The notes under the pieces are model-generated. The model saw only the letters and a list, made by a program, of their open reading frames with translations. It did not search any database and had not been told where the DNA came from. From a virus: DNA of 64,000 nucleotides. The stretch is taken from the IMG/VR virus record IMGVR_UViG_3300027704_000008, positions 1-64,000 of that record; one strand, given 5' to 3'. Shown here in pieces: positions 10,807 to 24,490 of the stretch. Both the position numbers and the translations under genes were made by a program. The stretch's first letter is position 1. The number at the start of each line of letters is the position of its first letter.

Positions 10807-10938
10807 ATGGCTAAATATACGCGCCACGATCAGCGTAATAAGAAGCGAAATAAACACAAGTGCGAGTCGAGGGATGGACGTCACTCCCCAAAAGTTAAGC
10901 GGGTAGGAAAAACCCCAACGGGAGTGCTAGCCGCATGA
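10807..10938 (+). CDS. Small highly basic protein
   Basis: 43 aa, more than one third Lys/Arg/His (MAKYTRHDQRNKKRNKHK ...). The stop TGA overlaps the next ATG as ATGA, and the start lies 12 nt after the endolysin stop, which supports translation. No family was recognised; it may bind nucleic acid. Confidence 0.6.
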   Translation: MAKYTRHDQRNKKRNKHKCESRDGRHSPKVKRVGKTPTGVLAA

Positions 10939-11219
10939 AGATTGATCTTAACGACGATGATGTCATAACTGAAAAGGAGTTGGACCTTTCACGACAGATA
11001 GCCGATCTAAGAAATGATCAGCTCAAGTGGGACGCGCAACGACATATGGCGTGGGTGGCTTTGTGGTCAATGGTACTCACTGTTGCTCTGATATTAACAG
11101 CTTTCATTAGCAACGAGCGAGTCACTTCTATTCGACCAATCATAGAAGTATTCATATTTGCTCAGAGTGGAGTGGTAGCGTTCTTCTTTGGTTTCTCAGC
11201 GTGGCTAAATAAAAAATAA
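10935..11219 (+). CDS. EF-hand two-TM membrane protein, holin candidate
   Basis: 94 aa. Residues 4-15 (DLNDDDVITEKE) form a canonical 12-residue EF-hand loop: acidic or Asn at positions 1, 3 and 5, Ile at 8, Glu at 12. A charged helix follows, then two membrane segments (about 40-60 and 70-90), ending in GFSAWLNKK. T4-like phages of marine bacteria carry similar proteins. Position right after the endolysin suggests a holin or lysis regulator, possibly calcium-responsive; this is inference. Confidence 0.7.
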   Translation: MKIDLNDDDVITEKELDLSRQIADLRNDQLKWDAQRHMAWVALWSMVLTVALILTAFISNERVTSIRPIIEVFIFAQSGVVAFFFGFSAWLNKK

Positions 11220-11224
11220 AGTAG

Positions 11225-11253
11225 TTGTATATGTACTGGAAATACAGTATAAT
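11225..11253 (+). promoter_or_regulatory. Sigma70-type promoter for the sugar cluster
   Basis: TTGTAT (11225-11230), 17-nt spacer, TATAAT (11248-11253). It lies in the only real gap before the glycosyltransferase block, 33 nt upstream of the first ATG. The -35 is weaker than at the other sites. Confidence 0.7.
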
Positions 11254-11285: not shown

Positions 11286-12035
11286 ATGAAGAACTTAGTT
11301 TATCAGTATTACATTCCATATGAAGCTGGTGATAAAGACATCGGCGGCGCTTCAATGCCTAATTGGGCATTATCCGGATCCACTTCAGCTAAATCATATG
11401 CTGCACATTGTGGCGCAGATTATATGTTGAGTCACGATCGACTCTACCCTCACCTCGACCCTCGACTAGAATCCCTCCAGTTAATTCACGATCCAACATT
11501 TGAACAGTATGATCATATCCTGGCTCTCGATCTTGATATGATTATTGCTACTCGTGAAAATATATTTGAACTGCCTATACAAGACATTGCTATGGTACAC
11601 GAGCTTGGTGTTTTCACAGGAAATTCAGCTGGTTGGATTAACAAGATTATGAATCATCCCATGGAGCAGAGAGGTGTCAGAGCTTATGGCCGTCATCTAT
11701 TTGGATCCGATTGGGATTTTCCTAAATCAACTTTGTATCCACAAGAACAGTTTCGATACATGAATGGAGGTCTGCAACTTTGGTCCGCTGCAGGTAGATT
11801 AAAAGCCAGAGAGAACTTCAGATGTGTTAATCATTATTATGCCCACACTCGATACACGGAGCAGATGTATATCAACATACAATTATCTCAACCAATGTTC
11901 AACGTCACAGAATTAGATACTTCGTGGAACCGGCTAGCTTATCAATGGCCCGGAAAAAAACCTGATGGTAAGATTAATCACTTTCTCGGACAGTCTAAGT
12001 CAATGATGAGTCAATATGGGAACTTGCACCAATGA
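11286..12035 (+). CDS. GT-A-type glycosyltransferase, MKNLVYQY family
   Basis: 249 aa. It starts MKNLVYQYYIPYE and carries a DxD metal and sugar-nucleotide motif in LALDLDMII (Asp82, Asp84), as in GT8-like retaining enzymes. FRYMNGGLQLWSAAG resembles the NxG acceptor-side motif. It is the first of four related genes (also 14763, 15587, 16246) that share the N-terminal strand, an aligned QYDxxLxLDxD block and a C-terminal HF-type segment. The acceptor is unknown: host surface glycan, virion protein and DNA are all possible. Confidence 0.75.
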   Translation: MKNLVYQYYIPYEAGDKDIGGASMPNWALSGSTSAKSYAAHCGADYMLSHDRLYPHLDPRLESLQLIHDPTFEQYDHILALDLDMIIATRENIFELPIQDIAMVHELGVFTGNSAGWINKIMNHPMEQRGVRAYGRHLFGSDWDFPKSTLYPQEQFRYMNGGLQLWSAAGRLKARENFRCVNHYYAHTRYTEQMYINIQLSQPMFNVTELDTSWNRLAYQWPGKKPDGKINHFLGQSKSMMSQYGNLHQ

Positions 12036-12622
12036 GCAATTACCTTGAAGTAGGCGCATCTAAACAAAGAGGATTGAACTGGATGTTGATTGGATTCAAT
12101 GTCCACGATATGACAAATCTACCAATACCGATGGTATCAGATAATGAGTTTGATGGTGTATATTCTGAGCACTTCATTGAGCACTTATACAAGTATCAAG
12201 GTATTAATTTTTTGAAGGAGTGTATGCGAATACTCAAGCCTGGTGGCACTATTCGAATCTGCTGGCCAGCATACGAATACGTTGAACGGTTGGTTGGTCC
12301 CGAGGATTTGACTAAGGACGAGTTTGTTGATGAGTATTACAATTTATATATCAAACCTAAACAGCATGATGAGTTTAAAGAGCATATGCATAGATCGCCT
12401 CAAGAACAAGTCGCGTTGAATATTATACATCAAGCTGGTCAGCATTTGCACGTTTGGGCCAAGACAGAATTGATGCAGGAGCTTTCGGACTTGGGATATG
12501 TGAACGTAGTCGATTGTGAATATGGTAAGAGTTCTATTATTGACTTCAATAATATTGAGACACCAGGAAGACTCAGAGAACTCCATTCCAGTCAAATTGA
12601 AGCTACAAAACCTAGGAATTAA
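12032..12622 (+). CDS. Class I SAM-dependent methyltransferase, copy 1
   Basis: 196 aa. The core is NEFDGVYSEHFIEHL ... LKECMRILKPGGTIRICWP, the motif post-I to motif III pattern of small-molecule or sugar methyltransferases. It starts YLEVGASKQRGLNW, a reduced motif I. The C-terminal SSIIDFNNIETPGRLRELHS is shared with the next gene. It overlaps the upstream transferase by 4 nt. Probably methylates a sugar of the glycan built by this cluster. Confidence 0.78.
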   Translation: MSNYLEVGASKQRGLNWMLIGFNVHDMTNLPIPMVSDNEFDGVYSEHFIEHLYKYQGINFLKECMRILKPGGTIRICWPAYEYVERLVGPEDLTKDEFVDEYYNLYIKPKQHDEFKEHMHRSPQEQVALNIIHQAGQHLHVWAKTELMQELSDLGYVNVVDCEYGKSSIIDFNNIETPGRLRELHSSQIEATKPRN

Positions 12623-12624
12623 TT

Positions 12625-13227
12625 ATGGCCACTTATTTAGAAATAGCAGCAGCCCGTAAACGTGGTCTCAATTGGGACGGCATTAGAGATGTTCCAATGG
12701 ATGGTTGTATGGTATATGATATGACCAACCTACCTATGAAGGGTGTGCAAGATAATACTTATGATGGTGTATATTCTGAGCACTTCATTGAGCACCTGCA
12801 CAAATATCAAGGCATCAATTTTCTAAAAGAATGTCTCCGTGTAATGAAACCAGGCGGCACCGTGCGCACATGCTGGCCCCCATATGATATTATAAAACGG
12901 TTAACCAGTAACGAAGATCTTTCTACTGATGAGTTTGTACAACACTATTACAACTTCTATGTTCAGAAACATAAGTTTGCTCCTCCAGGTAATGAGCACC
13001 GGAGCATGCAAGAACAAGTGGCTTTAGGTTTATTGCATCAATCTGGTGAACACAAATATCTCTGGGGTAAGCAAGAACTGATCGATACGCTTGGGGGGTT
13101 GGGTTTTGTTAATGTCAAGGAGTGCTCTTATAATAAAAGTTCTATATTAGATTTCAACGGTATAGAAACACCAGGTAGGATAAGAATGTTACATTCAGTG
13201 ATAGTAGAGGCATGTAAGCCGTGCTAA
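12625..13227 (+). CDS. Class I SAM-dependent methyltransferase, copy 2
   Basis: 200 aa and a tandem paralogue of the previous gene: DGVYSEHFIEHLHKYQGINF matches it nearly residue for residue, as do LKPGG/MKPGG and SSILDFNGIETPGR. A 34-nt DNA stretch is identical between the two (12151-12184 and 12762-12795), pointing to a fairly recent duplication. Differences cluster in the N-terminal 30 residues and at 115-125, so substrate choice may have diverged. Confidence 0.78.
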   Translation: MATYLEIAAARKRGLNWDGIRDVPMDGCMVYDMTNLPMKGVQDNTYDGVYSEHFIEHLHKYQGINFLKECLRVMKPGGTVRTCWPPYDIIKRLTSNEDLSTDEFVQHYYNFYVQKHKFAPPGNEHRSMQEQVALGLLHQSGEHKYLWGKQELIDTLGGLGFVNVKECSYNKSSILDFNGIETPGRIRMLHSVIVEACKPC

Positions 13228-13760
13228 CCATAATTGTATTGTATAAAGACACACCGGACATATTTAAAGAATATTGGTTACCCTTGATATACAAACATGG
13301 AGGGCAAGGGGCTCTACACGGAGCATGCTTGGAGTTTATTATTGTCGATAACGGATCAGATAATCCGTTGCCGGATCAAGGAATAAAAAATCTAAGAATA
13401 TACACCGCAGCAAAAACATTGCCTAATGATCAAGCCATCGGCATGGCGATTAGATATGCTCAAAATGAGTTAATACTTATTACGGATATTCATTCGTTGC
13501 CCACATATCAAACCATGACATTACTACAAGACCTATATAATAAGAATCAAACAATTTGGCCAGTGTGGTTTGACGCTCCCGACGTTAAATGTGAAAATGC
13601 CTTCTCTATACTGAGATCCGATTTTAAGAAACATAATGATATCCGAAAATGCGCCCAGCTAACTCAATCCTCGGTAGACTCTACAGCTAGTATGTATCGG
13701 GTTCCGTGGAGCATAATTATAGACAAAAACGCCGCTCGAATAAAAGCTCTTTATGAATAA
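13221..13760 (+). CDS. Short GT2-like glycosyltransferase
   Basis: 179 aa. The N-terminus LTIIVLYKDTPDIF and LEFIIVDNGSDNPLPD are the GT2 nucleotide-binding strands, and ILITDIHSLP replaces the usual DxD. It is much shorter than typical GT2 enzymes (over 230 aa) and lacks the C-terminal membrane-association region. It overlaps both neighbours by 7-8 nt. It may be a minimal or degenerate transferase. Confidence 0.62.
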   Translation: MLTIIVLYKDTPDIFKEYWLPLIYKHGGQGALHGACLEFIIVDNGSDNPLPDQGIKNLRIYTAAKTLPNDQAIGMAIRYAQNELILITDIHSLPTYQTMTLLQDLYNKNQTIWPVWFDAPDVKCENAFSILRSDFKKHNDIRKCAQLTQSSVDSTASMYRVPWSIIIDKNAARIKALYE

Positions 13761-14766
13761 TATACTTGTTGTGGGCGCAGGATTATCTGGGGCAGTTATT
13801 GCTAGGGAACTTGCTGAATTTGGTTGTAATGTGCATGTTATAGACAAGAGGGATCATGTTGCCGGAAACGCTTATGATTATCAAGATTCGTATACCGGTA
13901 TACGAATACATAAATATGGTCCTCATATATTTCACACCAATAACAAAAAAGCCTTCACTTGGTTCACTCGCTTTGGTGAGTGGGTTAATTATAAACATAA
14001 GGTGAAGGCTAAGTTGAAAAATGGTCAAATGGTGACTCTACCCGTCAATCTGACTACAAAAAGGATTGTCGGCGAAAATAATTTACTCGATGTTTTATTT
14101 CGCCCATATACAAAGAAGATGTGGAACAAAGAAATAGAAGAGTTGTCTCCCACTATTCTAAACCGGTTACCCACCCGAGACGATGATAACGAGTACTATT
14201 TTCCTAATGATCAATATCAATTTATGCCTAAGTCTGGATACACATCTATATTCAAAGAAATATTTGATCACAAAAATATCAAAGTTAGTCTGAACACCCC
14301 TTTCCATAAACATATGAAAAAAGATTATGATCATATATTCAACTCAATGTCTATAGATGAGTATTTTGACTACAGATATGGAAAGTTACCATATAGATCC
14401 ATAAAATTTTTAACGTCCACTTTAGGAGAAACTCAATATTACGGTTTGCCGGTAGTAAATTTTACAGACATGGGACCATTCACGCGCGTAACAGAGTGGA
14501 AGTGTTTTCCATCACACGGTGAAAATAAAAACTGCACAGTCGTGACCTTTGAGGAACCCTGCGACTATATGGACAACAATCTAGAAAGATATTATCCAGT
14601 AAAAGACATAGATGGATCAAATAGAAGGACATATCAATCTTATAAATTATTAGTAGAAGATAATATGACTTTCATCGGTCGGTGTGGAATGTATGTCTAT
14701 ATCGATATGGATCAGGCGATACATTCATCGCTAATAACAGCGCAGAAATTTAAGGATACAATATGA
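13753..14766 (+). CDS. glf: UDP-galactopyranose mutase
   Basis: 337 aa. FAD-binding GAGLSGAVIARELAEFG (8-24) is followed by VIDKRDHVAGNAYD, the hallmark YGPHIFHTN, PYTKKMWN, a substrate-side RVTEWKCFP, and a C-terminal GRCGMYVYIDMDQAIHSSL FAD/GR motif. These order and motifs are those of bacterial Glf, which converts UDP-galactopyranose to UDP-galactofuranose; usual length is about 370 aa, so this is a compact version. Its presence among glycosyltransferases implies the cluster uses Galf, a sugar common in bacterial surface polysaccharides. It overlaps both neighbours. Confidence 0.93.
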   Translation: MNNILVVGAGLSGAVIARELAEFGCNVHVIDKRDHVAGNAYDYQDSYTGIRIHKYGPHIFHTNNKKAFTWFTRFGEWVNYKHKVKAKLKNGQMVTLPVNLTTKRIVGENNLLDVLFRPYTKKMWNKEIEELSPTILNRLPTRDDDNEYYFPNDQYQFMPKSGYTSIFKEIFDHKNIKVSLNTPFHKHMKKDYDHIFNSMSIDEYFDYRYGKLPYRSIKFLTSTLGETQYYGLPVVNFTDMGPFTRVTEWKCFPSHGENKNCTVVTFEEPCDYMDNNLERYYPVKDIDGSNRRTYQSYKLLVEDNMTFIGRCGMYVYIDMDQAIHSSLITAQKFKDTI

Positions 14767-15587
14767 AGAATTTGATATATCAATACTGGGCAGGACCAGA
14801 TAAACCAGGAGTAACAGCCAGCACCGAGAAGATGGCAGAATACGCCAAACGCATCGGCGCGCAATATAGATTTGATAATAATATAATCATTGCTGGACAT
14901 AAGTGTGATGTGCCTATCTATTATGAACCAGCTAATCCGTTGGTGGATGATTCGTTCGATCAATATGATAATGTCGCTTTAGTTGACATTGATGTATTTC
15001 CAATTGATTCACTATCGGAAAATATATTTGAACATTTAAGCGGAGAAGACGCTGGTATATGCACTGAACCCATGCAACCATACTGGAGACAGATATATAA
15101 CGTAGCTAGCATAACAAACACCAATGATATGAGGTGGTGTAGTATACTAAAAGATAATTGGGGTGTAAATTATTCCTTTGATAATGAAGGACGACCAATG
15201 GTATATAATACCGGAGTGGTCGTCATTTCTAAAAAAGGACTGCAAAAGATTAAGAGTACTTGGCCGTCCTTTCAAGAATATATTAATGCTATGCGGCGCG
15301 CTGGCTTACCAAATTTTTACAACTTGTTTCAAGATTATTTCTCGGCCTTTATACATAAAGAGGGTTTTGAGTTCAAGTCTATGCATAATGGTTGGAATTC
15401 GTATGTACATAAACTTGGTGCACGTCCAAATGCTATAGCCAATGATACCAGAACCGATGAAACAAAACTGGTTCATATCATGTTTCGTAATGCAGATAAT
15501 TGGCCAGCAGATGCTCTTTGGCGAGTAACAAATCTACCCGTAACTCTCTGGAATTTACCAGTGCATTCTAACTGGCCAAATGATTGA
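14763..15587 (+). CDS. GT-A-type glycosyltransferase, MKNLIYQYW family
   Basis: 274 aa, starting MKNLIYQYWAGP. The DxD motif is VALVDIDVFP (Asp75, Asp77). PMVYNTGVVVISKKG gives the NTGV acceptor-region signature of GT8-like folds. Asn/Trp-rich C-terminal motifs (HNGWNSYVHK, FRNADNWPADALWR) are distinctive. It overlaps glf by 4 nt, so the Galf donor and this enzyme are probably made together; it is a candidate galactofuranosyltransferase, by context only. Confidence 0.72.
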   Translation: MKNLIYQYWAGPDKPGVTASTEKMAEYAKRIGAQYRFDNNIIIAGHKCDVPIYYEPANPLVDDSFDQYDNVALVDIDVFPIDSLSENIFEHLSGEDAGICTEPMQPYWRQIYNVASITNTNDMRWCSILKDNWGVNYSFDNEGRPMVYNTGVVVISKKGLQKIKSTWPSFQEYINAMRRAGLPNFYNLFQDYFSAFIHKEGFEFKSMHNGWNSYVHKLGARPNAIANDTRTDETKLVHIMFRNADNWPADALWRVTNLPVTLWNLPVHSNWPND

Positions 15588-16249
15588 TGAAAAATATTAT
15601 ACTTCAACATTTTACCGGAGAACTAAGACCGCTTGATAGATTATCAATATCAAACATAACAAGGTATTGTCATAAGATAGGCGTGGAATATGAATTAGTG
15701 TTGGGTCAAGCATTTCGGGAGCACCTCACTCCCCCGTGCCAAAAGGTATGTTTATTAGATGAACGTTTCGATCGATATGATAACGTTTTAATGCTAGACA
15801 TAGATATGTTTGCTACTAGAGATCTTTCCGATAATGTATTCGACATCGAGCCCGGAATAGGATTGCACGTTCAAACGCAACAAATGCTGCTGAGTCGTAT
15901 GGTGAGTCATTATAGGTTGCGTCCTCAATCGGCATATTGGGGTGGATCTTTCTATAAGATGGATCGAGAAACTAGGATAAAACTTCGCTCATTTATTCCC
16001 AAGGACGATAGTTGGATGGACTTATATAACAAACCATATCATTTTGAAGACGAAGGTATCATGGCTGAATTGTACCATAAGGCCGGATACACAGATACGA
16101 AATACATAGATAGACGTTGGTGCCAATGTAGTTTTTTACCCGAGCACGTGCCAGGCTTCATACACATCAGAACCAAGATAACTCCAGCTGGTCCAAAAAG
16201 AGAAAAGCTGGCTAACTATGACCACCTGGTATCAAAGGAAATAATATGA
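15587..16249 (+). CDS. GT-A-type glycosyltransferase, MKNIILQH family
   Basis: 220 aa from ATG 15587, which overlaps the previous stop (TGATG); the in-frame TTG one codon earlier is not needed. The sequence MKNIILQHFTGEL ... YDNVLMLDIDMFATRD (Asp71, Asp73) aligns throughout with the next gene. HFEDEGIMAELYHK and a C-terminal HIRTKITP segment hold the likely catalytic acidic residue and His. Paralogue of 16246-16965. Confidence 0.75.
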   Translation: MKNIILQHFTGELRPLDRLSISNITRYCHKIGVEYELVLGQAFREHLTPPCQKVCLLDERFDRYDNVLMLDIDMFATRDLSDNVFDIEPGIGLHVQTQQMLLSRMVSHYRLRPQSAYWGGSFYKMDRETRIKLRSFIPKDDSWMDLYNKPYHFEDEGIMAELYHKAGYTDTKYIDRRWCQCSFLPEHVPGFIHIRTKITPAGPKREKLANYDHLVSKEII

Positions 16250-16965
16250 ACAATATAATACTACAACATTGGAATGGAGACTTACCTAGCTGGGCATCTG
16301 TAGCTAGACAGACCATGGAAAATTATGCACAAGCTATAGGGTGTGATTATGAATTGGTCACAGGACATCCTGTGGGAAAACAACATGGTCCATGGAGTCA
16401 GAAGTTGTGTCACCTTGATGAAAAGTATGATAAATATGATAAGGTGTTAATGTTAGATATGGATACCATTGCCACTAGAAAGAACGCTAATGTTTTTGAT
16501 AGGCCTGAGGTTGGTGTGATACACGAACGCGCGATGATGGGGCCACACCGCGCCCGAACACCTAAAGGGGCTCCAGGTTTATATAATCGCGGCGAGTTAG
16601 TGTTCTTTGGTAACTTTATAATGTTGAAACGGGGTCAAAGATTGGCTCTTCGTGAGCATTTAGATTGGAACTTATTTGAAAAAGAAATAATAGATCATTA
16701 CTGTGGTGATGAAATTATTATGCATTATCTACTCGACAAGTCTGGTATACTGAAAGGTAAACCGTATGAAGAAATTTGTATGAGGTGCGGTGGAACTACA
16801 ATTGATAATGTGTATTTTAGAGAGTCTGGTACATATGATAAATTATTCTGCAATTTACCAGATGTGGGTCACACCGATCCTGATGGAAATGCTACCTTCG
16901 TTCATTTTTGTTCAAATCGAAAAAATAATTTAGAGTCTTTTGTTTCACAGCATAACATACTGTAA
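16246..16965 (+). CDS. GT-A-type glycosyltransferase, MNNIILQH family
   Basis: 239 aa. MNNIILQHWNGDLPSW ... YDKVLMLDMDTIATRK (Asp71, Asp73) aligns with the preceding gene; CGDEIIMHYLLDKSG corresponds to its DEGIMAELYHK. Compared with the upstream copy it has a central insert (HERAMMGPHRARTPKGAPGL) that could shape the acceptor site. It overlaps the previous stop (ATGA). Confidence 0.75.
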   Translation: MNNIILQHWNGDLPSWASVARQTMENYAQAIGCDYELVTGHPVGKQHGPWSQKLCHLDEKYDKYDKVLMLDMDTIATRKNANVFDRPEVGVIHERAMMGPHRARTPKGAPGLYNRGELVFFGNFIMLKRGQRLALREHLDWNLFEKEIIDHYCGDEIIMHYLLDKSGILKGKPYEEICMRCGGTTIDNVYFRESGTYDKLFCNLPDVGHTDPDGNATFVHFCSNRKNNLESFVSQHNIL

Positions 16966-16976
16966 GGAGAAATATT

Positions 16977-17555
16977 ATGATGTTTGGTCGCAACCCTGGT
17001 TCAGATAGAACCGTAGATCATATACCATTGGGTTCCACAGGCGCCGAGTTGGGTGTTTGGAAAGGTGATACATCCGCAAAGTTTTTAACTCGGGCTGGAC
17101 ACCTGCACCTAGTAGATTCGTGGAGTCCTATCCCGTATGAGGAATCTGGAGAATGGGGTACCTATCAGAATTATCTAGACAGATATTCCTGTCTAGTTGG
17201 AGGAGAAACAACCGAAGATTTTAATCAATTCTATGATCAAATATGTGAAGGTGTTAAAGCGAGATTTCTCTCTAGTAATGTAACAATACATAGAATGAGC
17301 ACAGATTCTTGGTTTGATAGAGCAATCAATAAGTATACCTTAGACTGGATATATGTTGACGCAAGCCACGCATACGAACAAGTATTAAAAGATCTTAACA
17401 ACAGTCTGCGGGTAGTTAAATATGGAGGATTTATTATTGGAGACGATTACTCTGATAAGAAACCTGGAGTGAAAGCGGCCGTGAACGATTTCATCTCATC
17501 GACGGACTATGTGCTTGACAACTTTTATGATGATCAATATAAAATAAACTTATGA
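16977..17555 (+). CDS. Class I SAM methyltransferase (Methyltransf_24-like)
   Basis: 192 aa. GAELGVWKGDTSAKFL is motif I, HLHLVDSWSP motif II, WIYVDASHAYEQVLKDLNNSLRVVKYGGFIIGDDY covers the metal-site DASH and the GG motif. This pattern is typical of the Methyltransf_24 / TylF-like group that methylates sugar hydroxyls or rhamnose. AAGGAG precedes the start by 5 nt (16966-16976 region). It differs in type from the tandem methyltransferases at 12-13 kb. Confidence 0.85.
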   Translation: MMFGRNPGSDRTVDHIPLGSTGAELGVWKGDTSAKFLTRAGHLHLVDSWSPIPYEESGEWGTYQNYLDRYSCLVGGETTEDFNQFYDQICEGVKARFLSSNVTIHRMSTDSWFDRAINKYTLDWIYVDASHAYEQVLKDLNNSLRVVKYGGFIIGDDYSDKKPGVKAAVNDFISSTDYVLDNFYDDQYKINL

Positions 17556-17644
17556 ACATAGATACCGCTAACATGCAATCTGGTGATGATAAACAACGCA
17601 TTGCAACAGCCGTAGAAAAGGCTATAAAGATTAACAACGGTTAA
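17552..17644 (+). CDS. Possible 30-aa peptide
   Basis: ATG 17552 overlaps the preceding stop (ATGA) and the frame runs 30 codons to TAA 17642-17644, filling nearly the whole gap to the next gene. The peptide (MNIDTANMQSGDDKQRIATA ...) has no recognisable domain. Translation is supported only by the overlap. Confidence 0.4.
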   Translation: MNIDTANMQSGDDKQRIATAVEKAIKINNG

Positions 17645-17650
17645 TACATA

Positions 17651-18376
17651 ATGATAAAGATATATATTATTACGACGAAAACTGACACGGCCACTAATCA
17701 AAGCCGCAAATTAATACACTCTATGTCCAAAAACAACATTGATACAGAGTGTATACTTGTTGAGGCGACTACTCCAGAAACGTTGACTTCACATTCGGCT
17801 GCGTCTAATCGCTTGTCCTCCTTCAAATGGAATTGGCCACTAACACCCCAGCAGAGTGGTATTGACATGGCGTCAGGGCTTTATAAGAACGCCTATGCCG
17901 CGCAAAATCAACAAAAGGTCATCGCCTGTGCAATCTCTCATGCTTTATTGTGGGAAAAATGTGTTGATATGGATGAGGATATAATGATACTCGAAAGTGA
18001 TTCTGTATTCACTCGTCATTTCGACTATAACGATGTCAAGGATAGCAAGTGGGGTGCACTTGGATTAAACGATCCACGAGGGACAACACGAAAGGCTTCG
18101 GTTTTTCATTCCATTGCTACAGCCAATAGGAAGCCGGGCGTATATAGTGTTCCGAAAGTTGATGAAATAGGAAGCGTTCCTCAACCACAGGGCTTAGCTG
18201 GGAATAGTGCATACCTGATACGTCCATATGCAGCAGCCCAGCTGCTAGACGCTATTGATACATATGGACTATGGCCCAACGATGCTTTGATGTGTCAAGA
18301 AATGTTTTCGTGGTTACGGATCACACAACCGTTTTATACTCGTGTGCAAGGTGGTGGATCGTCCACTAAAGGATAA
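17651..18376 (+). CDS. GT25-like glycosyltransferase, copy 1
   Basis: 241 aa. KIYIITTK at the start, ACAISHALLWEKC (about 92-104) and EDIMILESDSVF (109-120) match the SH-LW and LExD pattern of family 25 lipooligosaccharide glycosyltransferases. NSAYLIRPYAAAQLLD corresponds to the family's GxxAYlis segment. The following gene is a relative. GT25 enzymes usually add hexoses to LPS cores, which suggests surface-glycan modification. Confidence 0.75.
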   Translation: MIKIYIITTKTDTATNQSRKLIHSMSKNNIDTECILVEATTPETLTSHSAASNRLSSFKWNWPLTPQQSGIDMASGLYKNAYAAQNQQKVIACAISHALLWEKCVDMDEDIMILESDSVFTRHFDYNDVKDSKWGALGLNDPRGTTRKASVFHSIATANRKPGVYSVPKVDEIGSVPQPQGLAGNSAYLIRPYAAAQLLDAIDTYGLWPNDALMCQEMFSWLRITQPFYTRVQGGGSSTKG

Positions 18377-18384
18377 ATTATATT

Positions 18385-19047
18385 ATGAAAGCATTTGTTA
18401 TAACTATTATGAAGATGCGGGAGTCATATGACTGCGCGCAGAGGTGTATTAGGTCAGGCGCAAAATATGGTATTGATATAACACCGTTCTCTGCTATCAC
18501 GCCTTCAGATGGTCCAGTTAAGTTACTGCGTAGAGAAGGTATTGATTCTGAGCCGTTCACTAATAATGAATACTCTAAAGATCTCAATGCTATGTCGTGT
18601 TTTTTATCTCACTATCATTTGTGGAAGCGTTGTGCCAACGGTGACGAACCATATATGATACTGGAACACGATGCTGTGTTTACTGCCCCGTTACCGACTC
18701 TTATGTTTGATAAGGTCGTAAGTGTCGGCGCTCCAAGCTTCGGATCGTTCAACACCCCCACAACCCTTGGAGTGGGTCCGTTGGTTAGTAAGCGATACTT
18801 TCCAGGAGCCCATGCGTATCTTGTTAACCCACGAGGCGCAAAAGAACTGGTTGACCAGGCTAAGGTAACAGCAGCTCCCACAGACGTATTTCTTCATATA
18901 GGTACCTTCCCTTGGTTGCAAGAGTGCTACCCATGGGTAGCTGAGGTAAGAGATACTTTTACCACCGTTCAGGTGCAACGAGGATGTGAAGCTAAGCATA
19001 GTTATCGTAAGTCGGCTGCGGACTATAAAATTATGGATATTAAATGA
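18385..19047 (+). CDS. GT25-like glycosyltransferase, copy 2
   Basis: 220 aa. KAFVITIMKMRESYDCAQRC, AMSCFLSHYHLWKRC (69-83), EPYMILEHDAVF (88-99) and GAHAYLVNPRGAKELVD follow the GT25 pattern in order, with LEHD at the catalytic acidic site. It ends with an aromatic-rich region. It starts 8 nt after the previous gene and overlaps the next by 4. Confidence 0.78.
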   Translation: MKAFVITIMKMRESYDCAQRCIRSGAKYGIDITPFSAITPSDGPVKLLRREGIDSEPFTNNEYSKDLNAMSCFLSHYHLWKRCANGDEPYMILEHDAVFTAPLPTLMFDKVVSVGAPSFGSFNTPTTLGVGPLVSKRYFPGAHAYLVNPRGAKELVDQAKVTAAPTDVFLHIGTFPWLQECYPWVAEVRDTFTTVQVQRGCEAKHSYRKSAADYKIMDIK

Positions 19048-19769
19048 AACTCAATTTATTAACAGTGTGCACAGATTGGTATCCGTTAGAATACGCTAAC
19101 AAGCTGGTTAACCGTTTAAACGAAGTATCTCAATATGATATATCAAACTATTGCATAACAGATCGCGACATACAGTTTGCCGAACCAATCAAACCCAAGC
19201 TACCTCCAGGATCAGGCTGGTGGAATAAAACTCAGTTGTTTGACATTAATGGCCCATCCGGATGGAATTTATACATGGATATCGACATAGTCATTATAAA
19301 AGAGTTTGACCATGTGATAGATCATGTGATGCGTGAGGATAAACGAGACACAATAACTTGTGTCAGCGACGCCATCGGCTGGATGGATAATAAGTTTAGT
19401 TCGTCGTGGATGATGTTTTATAGAGGAGCGGGAGCAGATATTCCTACAACGTTTATGACCGACTCAAATAATATTATGAAACAACCTGGCGGTGATCAAG
19501 TGTGGATAGGTAAAACCATGCAGCCTAAGATAGAATACATTGATGATACCTTTCCACACTTAAAGAAGAACTTAAAATATGATCTGGGTTCAAAAATATT
19601 CGCCCCTTTGTCATCCACCCACCCTGTCAGATTGCCGGGGAGTAAATGGCAGTTCCCGACCGTCCTAGATAAAAGAGTATCTCTAGTTGACTGTGGAGGC
19701 AAACCTAAGCCACATGATCTCGAACAACTCGACTATATAAAGCGCAACTGGCACGACGTGAGGATATAA
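19044..19769 (+). CDS. GT8/GT-A-like glycosyltransferase
   Basis: 241 aa. GWWNKTQLFDI and GWNLYMDIDIVIIKEFD place a DxD at Asp79/Asp81. SSSWMMFYRGAGADI and PGGDQVWIG follow, as in GT8-like enzymes where the second motif contacts the acceptor. It is not closely related to the MKN-IYQYW family because the N-terminus and spacing differ. Overlaps both neighbours by 1-4 nt. Confidence 0.72.
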   Translation: MKLNLLTVCTDWYPLEYANKLVNRLNEVSQYDISNYCITDRDIQFAEPIKPKLPPGSGWWNKTQLFDINGPSGWNLYMDIDIVIIKEFDHVIDHVMREDKRDTITCVSDAIGWMDNKFSSSWMMFYRGAGADIPTTFMTDSNNIMKQPGGDQVWIGKTMQPKIEYIDDTFPHLKKNLKYDLGSKIFAPLSSTHPVRLPGSKWQFPTVLDKRVSLVDCGGKPKPHDLEQLDYIKRNWHDVRI

Positions 19770-20374
19770 TGTCAATAGTACACTTATTAGGAAACGGCGA
19801 CAGCGCCCAAATATTTAACAATGTCGAGAGGGAGCCAAAGGACAAGGTATTAATTTGCAATGTCCCACCGTTCACTGTCCGAAAAGTATTTGCGTGTATC
19901 ATGGTAGATTTCAAAATGATGGCAGCTCTTTCGGAAGGTAGTGTCAATTTAAATGCGTACGATTGGGTGTTGGGTACCAGACCACAGAGATATATGGAGA
20001 TGTTCCCTTCCTTCTATCTACAGTATGCCCCCCGCATCAAGGATTTTTATACCACAGTTCCTCCGTACGCTGGATCCGCCACCGACTTCAATTGTGGGCA
20101 TATGGCTGCACACTACGCTTGCTCTAAGTTGAAGTGCTCTGAGCTTCATATGTACGGTTTTGATAGCATATTCGATTACAGCCTGCGTAGCTCGTCGGAT
20201 CTGTTTCTGGAAAGCGATCGGGGTCAAATGAACAACCACCGTCTGATCAACATATGGCGGCCAATATGGGAAGGTATATTCAATGAGCACCCACAGGTTA
20301 AGTTTGTATTGCATCACACTCACAATAACGCTAAAATAGCCTTCCCCGACAACGTTGAAGTACGCACTCCCTAA
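19769..20374 (+). CDS. Unidentified Rossmann-like protein ending the sugar cluster
   Basis: 201 aa. It starts SIVHLLGNGDSAQIFN, a GNGxS loop after a hydrophobic strand like that seen in some sialyltransferase-type and DUF115-type folds. ATDFNCGHMAAHYACSKLKCSELHMYGFDSIF is a second Rossmann-like half with GFD, a motif found in phage and bacterial glycan-modifying proteins. The sequence is consistent with a GT-B-like or sialyltransferase-like enzyme, but I cannot name it. Last gene of the operon. Confidence 0.55.
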   Translation: MSIVHLLGNGDSAQIFNNVEREPKDKVLICNVPPFTVRKVFACIMVDFKMMAALSEGSVNLNAYDWVLGTRPQRYMEMFPSFYLQYAPRIKDFYTTVPPYAGSATDFNCGHMAAHYACSKLKCSELHMYGFDSIFDYSLRSSSDLFLESDRGQMNNHRLINIWRPIWEGIFNEHPQVKFVLHHTHNNAKIAFPDNVEVRTP

Positions 20375-21829: not shown

Positions 21830-21891
21830 GTAACACCAAAAAAGATCACCGCCAATAATTATAATATGGCGATAATAATGTTATAAATAGA

Positions 21892-21899: not shown

Positions 21900-21925
21900 A
21901 CACCCACTTGCATCTTGAGGGATAC

Positions 21926-23278
21926 ATGGCTTATACTAAACCAGTTCTAACCACGACATCCATAATCTGCCAATCAAACATGGTATATGATGGTCATGGT
22001 CAAACCATCTACGGCCGGATCATCGATGATGATGGTAACATTATATCTCAACATAATCATAGTAGTAATTCTACTCCGGATTATAGATTCACAGCTTTCA
22101 AAATTCCTGCGGGTACTGAGAATGTCACTATTAAAAACTGGAATTTCGTTAACGTCAGCATGGTCGTTCTTTTTCAGTCCCCCCCCGGTAATAATTCCAC
22201 CCAGAACCAGGTGCCGTGGCCATACAGCAGCAACATCCACATAGACAATTGCACATTGCACTCGGATCCAGCACCGTTTCCATTTATCAATTACTGGGGA
22301 CAATCTGTGCTATTTGACGCCGCGGGGAAAAAACTGTATGACACCAACTCGGGGATGTTTGTATATGGTGGAACTGGAATACGGCCCAGAAACTGTTCAC
22401 TTACCAGCTGTCGAGCTACTGGAAATGCGCGGTTGCTAATTGGAGGCCAGCATTCTATGGGATGGCTGATTGCCGATAATTATTGCAAGGGTGCTGAAGA
22501 CACTTGCATATACATGAAAGGAAATTTTAATAGGATTTATCGCAACACTATTATAAATTCTGGTAAGGATGGTATAAAGGTGTTGCAGAATCCTTACATA
22601 GATCCGGTGACTGGTCTCAGATCAGTTACTGTTGCCGGAAGTGCAACAGTAACTCCAGATAACGGTGCGTTGGACGTTAACCAGTTATGGAGCTACAGCC
22701 ACATAGCCGGCAACTACGTTGAAAACCATAGTCAAATAAAACCTGATGGTGGGGGGTGCATCATGATATGGACTCCAGGGAACCTTATAGAAAATAACGT
22801 AGTAAAAAACACCGTCTGGGGTAACACCGGCGACAAGCTCGATCCAGATTCATATACTGGTGGTGACGTTACAAATGCCAACCACATCGCGCAGGCGGGA
22901 GGTAAGCATAATGTAACCGGTGTTGAGATCGCCGGCGGCGTCACCGCTGGCGGCGACAAAAATGGCATTAACGTCACGAATAAAGGTATATGGAATACTT
23001 TGAGAAATAATATAAACATCCTACCTCACCCAGACAGTAACATCTATCGTGCCAACAAGTGGACCGGTGTAACAGTTAATACTGAATATGCCAAACCCGA
23101 CCCCGCCGACAATACCGAACCTCACCCAACTGATTCGTTTTGGCCTGACGCGTGGAATGCCTATTCAACCTTCGATAGTCAAAACAACGAGGAAATACGA
23201 ATAGTGCTTGACGAAGAACAGTATAACGATCCAGATAAGCATGACTTTCTCTTTTTAGCTAAAAAGAGATACTCATAA
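21926..23278 (+). CDS. Right-handed beta-helix spike-like protein 1
   Basis: 450 aa from ATG 21926 (GAGG upstream); an earlier in-frame start at 21908 is less likely. After an N-terminal module with SIICQSNMVYDGHGQTIYG comes a long series of short strands with N-xI/xV turns (NVTIKNWNFVN, NIHIDNCTLH, WLIADNYC, FNRIYRNTIINSG, NLIENNVVKNT), the pattern of PbH1 pectate-lyase-like coils. The late promoter points to a virion part or a secreted depolymerase acting on host surface glycan. No catalytic residues can be assigned. The N-terminal module is shared with the next gene. Confidence 0.75.
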   Translation: MAYTKPVLTTTSIICQSNMVYDGHGQTIYGRIIDDDGNIISQHNHSSNSTPDYRFTAFKIPAGTENVTIKNWNFVNVSMVVLFQSPPGNNSTQNQVPWPYSSNIHIDNCTLHSDPAPFPFINYWGQSVLFDAAGKKLYDTNSGMFVYGGTGIRPRNCSLTSCRATGNARLLIGGQHSMGWLIADNYCKGAEDTCIYMKGNFNRIYRNTIINSGKDGIKVLQNPYIDPVTGLRSVTVAGSATVTPDNGALDVNQLWSYSHIAGNYVENHSQIKPDGGGCIMIWTPGNLIENNVVKNTVWGNTGDKLDPDSYTGGDVTNANHIAQAGGKHNVTGVEIAGGVTAGGDKNGINVTNKGIWNTLRNNINILPHPDSNIYRANKWTGVTVNTEYAKPDPADNTEPHPTDSFWPDAWNAYSTFDSQNNEEIRIVLDEEQYNDPDKHDFLFLAKKRYS

Positions 23279-23311
23279 TAGTGTATACAAATAAATGTTT
23301 TTTTATTTTTC

Positions 23312-23319
23312 AATAAATA
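23312..23319 (+). promoter_or_regulatory. T4-type late promoter, one mismatch
   Basis: AATAAATA (consensus TATAAATA), 32 nt before ATG 23351, in the AT-rich gap between the two spike-like genes. Confidence 0.55.
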
Positions 23320-23350
23320 GAAGAAGAACCACAAATAGAGAGAGAGTAGT

Positions 23351-24490
23351 ATGGCAAGCATAATATGCGAATCCAACGTTGTTTATGACGGGCGAGGGCA
23401 GGTGATTGAAGGTGAAAATATAGCCTTTGTAATTAACGCTGGAGTGAGCAACGTTGTCATTAAGAACTATGTTTTTAAGAACTGTAAATATGGCATTCGC
23501 GGGGCGCGGACATTTAGTGGAAGCGCCATCTACTTAGGAGCAGAATCTACCAACATTGCTGTTGAGGATAATGAATATCATAATGACTACCACACGCCGG
23601 AGATACCCGCGGTGCCCTTTTTCTCTCCATCAGTACCAGCATATGCACCCGTTCCTGGTTCCAGTACTGGGGAGGGGTGGTTAGTCGCGGGCGGTGGTAT
23701 AATGCACGATGTTCGGATAACGAACAATAGATGCACGGGGGGAGCTAATATTGCCGCTACGGGCACGTTTACAGCCCCCGACTCCGACGGAACCGGCAAC
23801 GGGATCTCGGGCCCCGCTGGCAGACTCGACTGGTTCAGGAGCCGAACGTGGGATATATCATCCAATAGCAGCGATGGGTGTCTGGGCAGTTCTATAAAGC
23901 TCAACGGATGGGGGCATCAAATTACGGGGAACCATATTAAGAATAGCGGCAAGGAAGCTATATCGGTTAACCCAATGCAGAAGGATATTGAGAAAGAATA
24001 TCCCAGCCTGACGAAAAACGTAAATCACTGGGACGTTGCACAAGGTGCACACTTCATTGCCTACAACAACATCCAAGAATATGGGCTTAAAGATTCTTCC
24101 TCTGAGGGAGCTATTTCCATTAGACAACCGATGACCAGGGTTGAAAACAACATCGTTAAGGTGACATCACGGGGACTACAAGATTCGGATGTGTTCAAGA
24201 CAGCATACTTTTACAGTAACATGGCGCCCTTTTTATTCAGCTATGATAACATTGCTAGGATGGGAGGCGACTCCGCAACGAGCTTTTTCCGCCCATATAC
24301 CCTGCAAGCGGGCGTAGTGCCGTCCAATTACCCCGATGACTCTCCGGGTGGTACACAGTACTCTACAATATGGCCAGTGACAAAGATGATTGTCAACGAT
24401 GATTCAGCCACTTACGCGGGCTGGTCATTACTTGAAAGAAATGACCGCTTCTTCGATAGTGACTATATTATTCCTATTATTAAGTTATGA
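23351..24490 (+). CDS. Right-handed beta-helix spike-like protein 2
   Basis: 379 aa. Starts MASIICESNVVYDGRGQVIEG, a close match to the first spike's N-terminal module, followed by PbH1-like coils (NVVIKNYVFKNCKYGI, NIAVEDNEYHN, DVRITNNRCTGG, HQITGNHIKNSG, TRVENNIVKVTS). The middle 190 nt are markedly GC-richer than the flanks and encode a Pro/Gly-rich loop (AYAPVPGSSTGEG). Probably an alternative receptor-binding or glycan-degrading protein sharing the attachment module. Late promoter variant upstream. Confidence 0.75.
   Translation: MASIICESNVVYDGRGQVIEGENIAFVINAGVSNVVIKNYVFKNCKYGIRGARTFSGSAIYLGAESTNIAVEDNEYHNDYHTPEIPAVPFFSPSVPAYAPVPGSSTGEGWLVAGGGIMHDVRITNNRCTGGANIAATGTFTAPDSDGTGNGISGPAGRLDWFRSRTWDISSNSSDGCLGSSIKLNGWGHQITGNHIKNSGKEAISVNPMQKDIEKEYPSLTKNVNHWDVAQGAHFIAYNNIQEYGLKDSSSEGAISIRQPMTRVENNIVKVTSRGLQDSDVFKTAYFYSNMAPFLFSYDNIARMGGDSATSFFRPYTLQAGVVPSNYPDDSPGGTQYSTIWPVTKMIVNDDSATYAGWSLLERNDRFFDSDYIIPIIKL

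What the first reader, a model, noticed from the sequence alone, without database searches (positions are those of the whole stretch)
11286..20374. Nine-kilobase sugar cluster including a UDP-galactopyranose mutase
Twelve overlapping or nearly adjacent genes: at least eight glycosyltransferases (MKN-IYQYW family, GT2-like, GT25-like, GT8-like), three methyltransferases and Glf. Glf makes the Galf donor, a sugar used in bacterial O-antigens and capsules, so the phage may rebuild its host's surface (superinfection exclusion or antigen masking), decorate its virion, or glycosylate its DNA. The single sigma70 promoter at 11225 suggests early expression, favouring host remodelling.
Basis: partly seen in the sequence, partly recalled or inferred. 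Interest (0 to 1): 0.82.

Follow-up and report, generated by a model that had tools for sequence, protein, structure and literature searches.

The report
Phage sugar-chain building gene cassette
This virus of bacteria carries a thirteen-gene kit that probably builds a sugar chain, one of many mix-and-match versions seen in uncultured viruses, most likely to change its host's surface or to coat its own particles.

Summary
None has a predicted membrane segment. Ten of ten genes comparable with a close relative are under purifying selection. The cluster is one version of a modular cassette in uncultivated phages: a constant 3' end (GT25-GT25-GT-g13) and a highly variable 5' part. g13 matches no Pfam, PHROGs or NCBIfam model and has a Cst-II-like predicted fold. 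It has at least 557 relatives in viral contigs but only 1 in 50,697 named phage records. glf lies directly before 40 of 47 close g06 relatives and none of 33 distant ones, so g06 is the best candidate for the galactofuranose step. The families (GT8-like, GT25, Cst-like) are those of lipooligosaccharide outer-core assembly, so host-surface remodelling is my first choice (0.45). Virion glycosylation is a strong rival (0.35); DNA glycosylation is unlikely. Such clusters in marine T4-like phages are published. The constant module, the g13 family and the glf-g06 pairing are what I found beyond that.

The parts
10935..11219 (+). small membrane protein (EF-hand-like N-terminus by eye, hydrophobic stretches) just upstream of the cassette; conserved neighbour, probably not part of it
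   Evidence: cluster c13 with members in 41 loci; hydropathy peak 2.26
11225..11253 (+). -10-like TATAAT (11248-11253) with a poor -35 (TTGTAT); weak promoter candidate
   Evidence: not listed by the consensus scan
11286..12035 (+). g01, MKN-family glycosyltransferase, DLD motif
   Evidence: relatives of 55% identity or more stand at the 5' side of many sister cassettes
12032..12622 (+). g02, SAM methyltransferase (Methyltransf_11), paralogue of g03
   Evidence: PF08241 E 4.9e-9; 58% identical to g03
12625..13227 (+). g03, SAM methyltransferase (Methyltransf_11)
   Evidence: PF08241 E 5.3e-7
13221..13760 (+). g04, GT2-like glycosyltransferase (weak assignment)
   Evidence: PF00535 E 0.04, below cut-off; cluster c17 with members in 35 loci
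13753..14766 (+). g05 = Glf, UDP-galactopyranose mutase
   Evidence: PF03275 9.4e-54; PDB 1wam E 1.6e-70; catalytic positions conserved in 40 sequences, the window included
14763..15587 (+). g06, GT8-like glycosyltransferase (MKN family), coupled to glf; candidate galactofuranosyltransferase or transferase acting on galactofuranose
   Evidence: glf match ends 0-21 bp upstream in 40 of 47 close relatives and is absent in 33 of 33 distant ones; model pLDDT 91.9; fold matches
15584..16249 (+). g07, MKN-family glycosyltransferase (ATG start at 15587 likely), DID motif
16246..16965 (+). g08, MKN-family glycosyltransferase, DMD motif
16977..17555 (+). g09, SAM methyltransferase (Methyltransf_24)
   Evidence: PF13578 3.4e-13
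17585..17644 (+). remnant (last 19 codons and stop) of a capsule-synthesis-like gene that is whole in a near relative; deletion scar
   Evidence: L003:13857-14870 whole, PF05159 E 7e-7
17651..18376 (+). g10, GT25 glycosyltransferase (constant module)
   Evidence: PF01755 1.3e-13; relative in 65 of 70 g13 loci with at least 8 kb upstream
18385..19047 (+). g11, GT25 glycosyltransferase (constant module)
   Evidence: PF01755 1.1e-12; relative in 70 of 70 of those loci
19044..19769 (+). g12, glycosyltransferase (phrog_1962); this position is held by one of several alternative families
   Evidence: phrog_1962 1.3e-11; alternatives c3, c41, c74
19769..20374 (+). g13, Cst-II-like (GT42/GT29 fold) putative glycosyltransferase without a family model; constant 3' end of the cassette
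21882..21889 (+). late-promoter-like TATAAATA, first one after the cassette, 26 bp before the 21908 gene

Best explanation
The 13 genes are one operon-like cassette of soluble cytoplasmic enzymes that builds a methylated oligosaccharide. Shown by sequence or prediction: Glf with its catalytic residues, nine predicted glycosyltransferases, three methyltransferases, no predicted membrane protein, a constant 3' end and a variable 5' end. Inferred: Glf turns the host's UDP-galactopyranose into UDP-galactofuranose. g06 (GT8-like) either transfers that galactofuranose or adds the next sugar onto it. The other MKN-family and GT2-like enzymes add the variable sugars, and the methyltransferases cap them. 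The constant module (GT25, GT25, g12, Cst-like g13) makes the part shared by the versions. Inferred and less sure: the acceptor is the host's lipooligosaccharide core, so that before the late phase of infection the cell surface changes and blocks adsorption by competing phages. Swapping 5' genes would change the serotype-like tip.
For: The families present (GT8-like fold, GT25, Cst-like fold) are those of lipooligosaccharide outer-core assembly (pathway link recalled): LgtC is among the g06 fold matches (Z 14.3), and Cst-II and Cst-I head the g13 list (Z 11.2, 10.3). All 13 look soluble: highest hydropathy 1.48 over 19 residues, against 2.26 for the membrane protein next door; such enzymes can extend lipid cores without a flippase (recalled). 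The Glf residues checked are kept. glf and g06 are linked: 40 of 47 close against 0 of 33 distant g06 loci; after merging at 90% identity, 21 of 25 clusters (one of the 21 mixed) against 0 of 18, Fisher p 1.4e-8, not corrected for kinship. The late motif lies before the cassette in 0 of 28 distinct upstream stretches of 120 bases, while the window holds 11 against 5.4 expected, with at most 10 in 100 shuffles. Sister viruses carry capsule-synthesis-, epimerase- and sulfotransferase-like genes, one representative of each tested (gene orders). The same virus encodes a PF09694 protein, a kind I recall as an outer-membrane protein of Gram-negatives. Published pelagimyophages carry glycosyltransferases in the tail-fibre region, read there as O-chain modification (PMC7029224, abstract and passages).
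Against: No acceptor is shown, and the host is unknown. The best VIA-align match of g06 is the PBCV-1 capsid-glycan enzyme (Z 16.5), not a lipopolysaccharide enzyme. Nine transferases and three methyltransferases look like a lot for simple receptor masking. Seven of 47 close g06 relatives have no glf nearby, and none was found in their held, fragmentary records. Conversely glf can stand without g06: of nine loci found with Glf, five have g06, one long locus (L005) has no other cassette gene, three are short contigs. The -35 box of the candidate promoter is poor.
Confidence: 0.45

Rival explanations
1. Virion glycosylation. The cassette builds a methylated oligosaccharide in the cytoplasm on a phage structural protein such as a tail fibre or capsid protein, as chloroviruses and some mycobacteriophages do. 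The constant end makes the protein-linked part and the variable end the tip.
For: Best VIA-align match of g06 is the glycosyltransferase of PBCV-1 major-capsid glycosylation (2p6w, Z 16.5, 195 residues, rmsd 3.4). PBCV-1 makes its capsid glycan in the cytoplasm with mostly or wholly virus-encoded enzymes, among them glycosyltransferases and a methyltransferase, around a conserved core (PMC7826918, abstract and passages). Mycobacteriophages glycosylate capsid and tail tube (PMC12363180, passages). All 13 enzymes look soluble. In C48C1 the cassette follows three long genes (1.5-4.4 kb) that may be tail fibres (my reading).
Against: No late motif before the cassette. Foldseek's own list for g06 is headed by a xylosyltransferase, UGGT and LgtC, with the PBCV-1 enzyme fourth, and a shared fold shows no function. 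GT25 and the Cst-like fold point to lipooligosaccharide enzymes. No structural gene was recognised inside the cassettes viewed.
Confidence: 0.35
2. DNA glycosylation: the enzymes decorate hypermodified bases of the phage genome.
For: FolE-, QueD- and QueE-like genes exist in the same virus (L017), so some modified-base or pterin chemistry is possible.
Against: No match to thymidylate synthase/hydroxymethylase (PF00303), QueC (PF06508) or TGT (PF01702) in the held 138.6-kb record, which may be incomplete. Thymidylate synthesis is by a ThyX-type enzyme. I know of no sugar chain of such length on DNA.
Confidence: 0.03
3. A complete new surface polymer (capsule or exopolysaccharide) is made during infection.
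For: A near relative has a capsule-synthesis-like gene (PF05159) in the cassette, of which only a remnant is left here.
Against: No flippase, polymerase or polyprenol-phosphate transferase is recognised, and no membrane protein is predicted among the 13.
Confidence: 0.07

Closest known systems
Glycosyltransferases in the host recognition cluster of pelagimyophages and cyanomyophages (PMC7029224; abstract and passages seen)
   Same: T4-superfamily aquatic phages; glycosyltransferases, GT8 most of all, in a hypervariable region; same proposed role
   Different: The text has 0 occurrences of 'galactopyranose' and of 'methyltransferase', and the passages seen mention no constant GT25-GT25-GT-g13 module. 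The Synechococcus phages of the named collection (377 records with a terminase match) show no g13 at E 1e-5
Phage C48C1 (OQ984149)
   Same: Closest named phage: terminase 63%, Glf 57%; the only named phage with a g13 match (47%)
   Different: glf lies at 52-53 kb beside two unnamed genes, about 50 kb from its g13; its g06 relative is only 26% identical
glf of Aeromonas, Erwinia, Rhizobium and Agrobacterium phages (among 88 records with a match)
   Same: Phage-borne UDP-galactopyranose mutase, 34-42% identical in the rows listed
   Different: In the three stretches viewed no other gene is annotated as a sugar enzyme
Chlorovirus PBCV-1 capsid glycosylation (PMC7826918, abstract and passages; that the PDB entries are A064R domain 1 is recalled)
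   Same: Virus-encoded cytoplasmic glycosyltransferases plus methyltransferase; conserved core; best VIA-align match of g06
   Different: Algal virus; A064R is a three-domain protein that adds rhamnose; 15% identity over the fold match
Lipooligosaccharide outer-core loci with LgtC (GT8), GT25 and Cst (GT42) enzymes of Neisseria, Haemophilus and Campylobacter (recalled)
   Same: Same set of transferase families or folds
   Different: No sequence-level match of g13 to Cst enzymes; viral location; methyltransferases interleaved

Membership tests
UDP-galactopyranose mutase (Glf) | Pfam GLF domain above cut-off and N-terminal nucleotide-binding fold | tested here: met
   PF03275 182.6 bits against cut-off 26.3; PF13450 67.6 against 21.9
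UDP-galactopyranose mutase (Glf) | Catalytic and substrate residues (K. pneumoniae H60, H63, Y155, W160, R174, Y185, R280, Y314, R343, Y349, D351; list recalled) | tested here: met
   All 11 present in the window protein; ten positions alike in 40 of 40 sequences and D351 in 39 of 40 (mapped by hand, counted). GxGxxG glycines in 38 of 40, the other two being gaps there
UDP-galactopyranose mutase (Glf) | NCBIfam equivalog cut-off TIGR00031 (a scoring threshold, not a mechanistic feature) | tested here: not met
   281.1 bits against 303.75; 337 aa, residues 104-140 of the bacterial enzyme not aligned. So 'Glf' rests on Pfam, residues and homology, not on this cut-off
UDP-galactopyranose mutase (Glf) | Enzymatic activity | not testable with these tools
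   -
GT8 (g06, considered) | GT-A-type fold with DxD and similarity to GT8 structures | tested here: met
   DID aligned with the DxD of the other three paralogues; WbbM 280-561 Z 14.8, LgtC 14.3, glycogenin 12.7-13.5 (that these are GT8 is recalled)
GT8 (g06, considered) | Match to a GT8 sequence model or solved GT8 sequence | tested here: not met
   No Pfam glycosyltransferase match; best profile hit in the PDB is LARGE1 at E 0.17. So 'GT8-like', not filed as GT8
GT42 sialyltransferases (g13) | Cst-type fold | tested here: met
   Z 11.2 to 1ro7 over 186 residues, rmsd 4.0; but SteA (10.2), MptE-like HPPK (9.8) and mammalian GT29 (6.8-8.4) are near, and Foldseek alone gave no E below 0.001
GT42 sialyltransferases (g13) | Sequence similarity to Cst enzymes | tested here: not met
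   No Cst chain at E up to 10 with the profile of A4; no Pfam family. Not filed as GT42
GT42 sialyltransferases (g13) | CMP-sialate donor use | not testable with these tools
   -
GT25 (g10, g11) | PF01755 above cut-off | tested here: met
   51.7 and 48.7 bits against 24
T4-type DNA glucosylation | Hydroxymethylated pyrimidine supply (PF00303-type enzyme) | tested here: not met
   0 matches in the own record, which may be a fragment
Marine T4-like phage glycosyltransferase clusters (host recognition cluster) | Variable region with glycosyltransferases in a T4-superfamily phage | tested here: met
   gp32, terminase and baseplate genes; 49 distinct 8-gene orders in 70 loci
Marine T4-like phage glycosyltransferase clusters (host recognition cluster) | Tail fibre genes in the same region | tested here: inconclusive
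   Two proteins at 21908-24490, the first 26 bp behind a late-type motif, look like beta-helix adhesins by eye; no family match

The most novel reading that the evidence does not exclude
A large group of uncultured T4-superfamily phages carries its own glycan locus, organised like a bacterial O-antigen locus: a constant module ending in a new Cst-like glycosyltransferase family (g13) and an interchangeable set of outer sugars, here including galactofuranose. It makes a complex methylated glycan on the virion itself, the tailed-phage counterpart of the chlorovirus glycan coat, so that phages have switchable serotypes.
Probability: 0.28. Interest if true: 0.82.

Novelty: new variant of a known kind. 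Interest (0 to 1): 0.52.

Why it matters
Single phage glycosyltransferases for serotype conversion and a few for capsid glycosylation are known. Here a whole pathway with a constant and an interchangeable part recurs in many viral contigs, yet its hallmark gene matches only one named phage. If true, these phages either rewrite the surface of their bacterial hosts or carry variable sugar coats; both would shape who infects whom. The glf-g06 pair and the g13 family give concrete enzymes to test.

Tried and rejected
Near DNA search of the cluster in named phages: no match. tblastn of g08 in named phages: no match. g11 matched 8 records, none over 80% of its length. Sequence profiles of g13 and g06 against the PDB gave nothing significant. 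Foldseek alone gave no E below 0.001 for g13; the Cst match rests on the VIA-align second look. BFVD shows g13-like folds in viral proteins mostly without a name, a few lower-ranked ones labelled MptE-like or GT29.

Host: not found. One genome-contig scan with g13 gave 5 contigs binned with unrelated groups. Four of the five loci also show a gp32 match, so they look like phage contigs in bins; the fifth (L182) shows only g13 and a nuclease match. This scan uses two short peptide patterns and sees close relatives only. No psbA/psbD-type match in the own record, so no sign of a cyanophage. No held paper has both 'C48C1' and 'phage'.

Rejected: DNA glycosylation; capsule export (no membrane protein); the idea that glf and g06 are always together (7 of 47 close g06 relatives lack glf; 4 of 9 loci found with Glf lack g06, 3 of these on short contigs); the idea that the promoter proves early expression.

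Limits of counts: the search for related loci keeps the best 80 loci (of 160 for g06, of at least 557 for g13), so both sets are picked by similarity. The split between close and distant g06 was set after seeing a gap in identity (39-48% against 60% and more). Distances between glf and g06 are between tblastn match ends. The 70 g13 loci join both sets, and some contigs occur twice (for example L028/L174, L082/L121). In one search six rows at position -1 are the g13 frame itself with an early start, and single genes without relatives are lumped as one kind. One search prints gene orders for 33 loci. Some distant-g06 loci (for example L084) have other neighbours and no g13 in the stretch held, so the slot and the constant end do not hold for all relatives of g06. 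L089 was dropped from alignment A5 because its stretch holds a stop codon.

Literature: 'not in print' is not claimed. Searches were.
Full report
Where it is. The window is bases 1-64000 of a virus record of 138,622 bases, possibly a fragment. The virus belongs to the T4 superfamily: it has gp32 (PF08804), a T4-type terminase and baseplate genes. Its closest named relative by terminase is Phage C48C1, listed under Kyanoviridae (63%). The host is unknown.

What is there. Thirteen + strand genes follow each other from 11286 to 20374. I call them g01 to g13. g05 is Glf (PF03275, 9.4e-54). g02 and g03 (58% identical) and g09 are SAM methyltransferases. g10 and g11 are GT25. g12 matches a phage glycosyltransferase family. 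g04 is GT2-like at best (E 0.04). g01, g06, g07 and g08 are one paralogous family with an aligned DxD. g13 matches no family in Pfam (up to E 1), PHROGs (0.01) or NCBIfam (0.05). The genes are real: dN/dS against a close relative (L003) is 0.00-0.12 for the ten genes that could be compared. The highest hydropathy over 19 residues among the 13 proteins is 1.48, so none looks membrane-bound.

Glf looks active. Eleven catalytic or substrate residues recalled from the K. pneumoniae enzyme are all present in the window protein. Ten of the positions are alike in 40 of 40 sequences, the window included, and the eleventh in 39 of 40 (alignment mapped by hand, counts). The protein is short (337 aa), lacks a match to residues 104-140 of the bacterial enzyme, and scores below NCBIfam's equivalog cut-off (281.1 against 303.75). 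Glf as such is not new in phages: 88 of 50,697 named phage records hold a match, several annotated so, and one paper names it in an Agrobacterium phage (PMC6630229, passages).

Relatives. The g06 profile found 160 relatives in IMG/VR, of which the best 80 were kept. In named phages at E 1e-5, g13 has one match, C48C1, g06 one weak match, also C48C1, and g08 none. A pattern scan of 84,980 bacterial and archaeal genomes with g13 gave five contigs. Four of these stretches also show a gp32 match and so look like phage contigs in bins; the fifth shows only g13 and a nuclease match. So far the family looks viral, within what that scan can see.

A modular cassette. In relatives whose contig reaches far enough, the cassette is followed by gp32 (for example L095, L118, L139) and preceded by phoH and often the small membrane protein (for example L028, L060, L063). 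Of 70 loci with g13 and at least 8 kb upstream, 70 have a g11 relative and 65 a g10 relative. The three positions before g13 hold 6-7 gene families each, positions 5 to 8 hold 20-23 each, and 49 distinct 8-gene orders occur. So the 3' end (GT25-GT25-GT-g13) is constant and the 5' part variable. A group of loci with distant g06 relatives (for example L084) has other neighbours and no g13 in the stretch held. Sister viruses also have epimerase-, sulfotransferase- and capsule-synthesis-like genes, one representative of each tested. Change is recent: the near relative L003 has a whole capsule-synthesis-like gene between g09 and g10, of which the window keeps only the last 19 codons and the stop, so the window's lineage probably lost it.

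The glf-g06 pair. The glf match ends 0-21 bp before g06 in 40 of 47 loci whose g06 is close to ours, and glf is absent in all 33 loci with a distant g06. After merging at 90% identity it is 21 of 25 clusters (one mixed) against 0 of 18 (Fisher p 1.4e-8, not corrected for kinship). The seven exceptions show no glf in their held records, which are fragments of 7.6-53 kb. In the other direction the link is weaker: of nine loci found with Glf itself, five have g06, L005 has glf with no other cassette gene in 21 kb, and three short contigs show none; C48C1 has no g06 relative in the 41 kb around its glf. The simplest reading is that g06 uses UDP-galactofuranose or adds a sugar onto galactofuranose.

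Folds. The g06 model (pLDDT 91.9) matches the PBCV-1 capsid-glycan glycosyltransferase best by VIA-align (Z 16.5), then WbbM residues 280-561 (14.8) and LgtC (14.3); Foldseek's own order is a xylosyltransferase, UGGT, LgtC, then the PBCV-1 enzyme. I recall that this part of WbbM is its galactopyranosyl part, so the fold does not prove galactofuranose transfer. The g13 model (pLDDT 92.6) matches Cst-II (11.2) and Cst-I (10.3), with SteA (10.2) and an MptE-like pterin kinase (9.8) close behind and mammalian GT29 enzymes at 6.8-8.4. Foldseek alone gave no E below 0.001, and no sequence similarity to Cst enzymes was found, so I call it Cst-like and do not file it as GT42.

Timing. TATAAATA, the late motif of T4-like phages (recalled), occurs 11 times in the window against 5.4 expected. 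Eight of the 11 lie 17-66 bp before a gene start, one of them before gp32. None lies between 8664 and 21882. It is absent from the 120 bases before g01 in all 28 distinct stretches compared, the window included. The proposed sigma70 promoter has a good -10 and a poor -35; TATAAT occurs in 7 of the 28. Expression is thus probably not late; more cannot be said.

What it does. Three acceptors were weighed. Host lipooligosaccharide fits the families (GT8-like, GT25, Cst-like), the soluble enzymes and the lack of a late motif, and agrees with the published reading of glycosyltransferases in pelagimyophages (PMC7029224, abstract and passages). Virion protein fits the PBCV-1 match and the interleaved methyltransferases (PMC7826918, abstract and passages), and mycobacteriophages are precedents (PMC12363180, passages). 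DNA is unlikely, since no hydroxymethylase, QueC or TGT match was found in the held record, though FolE-, QueD- and QueE-like genes are present. I put host surface first at 0.45 and virion at 0.35; the data do not separate them firmly.

Verdict. The kind of thing is known; the constant module with a Cst-like family that has no model, the glf-g06 pair and the spread in uncultured viruses make it a new variant worth following.

Noticed in passing
L017:6315-9284 (own record 90315-93284): QueD-like, QueE-like (Fer4_12 match; QueE by eye) and FolE genes, but no QueC or TGT match in the held record; purpose unclear (7-deazaguanine or pterin).
   Followed up: partly
L017:17498-18079: A further sugar enzyme: Pfam GT29 sialyltransferase match (E 8.7e-8), far from the cassette.
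   Followed up: no
L016:8393-9100: Phage-encoded Gcw_chp (PF09694) protein, E 3.1e-31, with a signal-peptide-like start by eye; possible envelope protein.
   Followed up: no
L018:3726-4946: Reprolysin-like metallopeptidase (PF13582, E 1.7e-11); the start of the frame reads like a lipoprotein signal by eye.
   Followed up: no
L018:14830-15900: BspA-type leucine-rich repeat protein (LRR_5, E 4.3e-73).
   Followed up: no
21908-23278 and 23351-24490: Two beta-helix-looking proteins without family matches, the first 26 bp behind a late-type TATAAATA; possible receptor-binding or depolymerase proteins.
   Followed up: partly
13886-13907: Perfect 22-bp palindrome inside glf, kept in L003 and in none of the loci from L022 on.
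   Followed up: partly
10935-11219: EF-hand-like protein with hydrophobic stretches; its cluster has members in 41 loci, often just before the cassette; function unknown.
   Followed up: no
L012:17555-21002 and L020:20185-30383 (Phage C48C1): C48C1 has glf beside two unnamed genes in a stretch with several tRNAs, and a separate stretch from the g06 relative to g13 that holds a Nol-like carbamoyltransferase and an annotated glycosyltransferase.
   Followed up: partly
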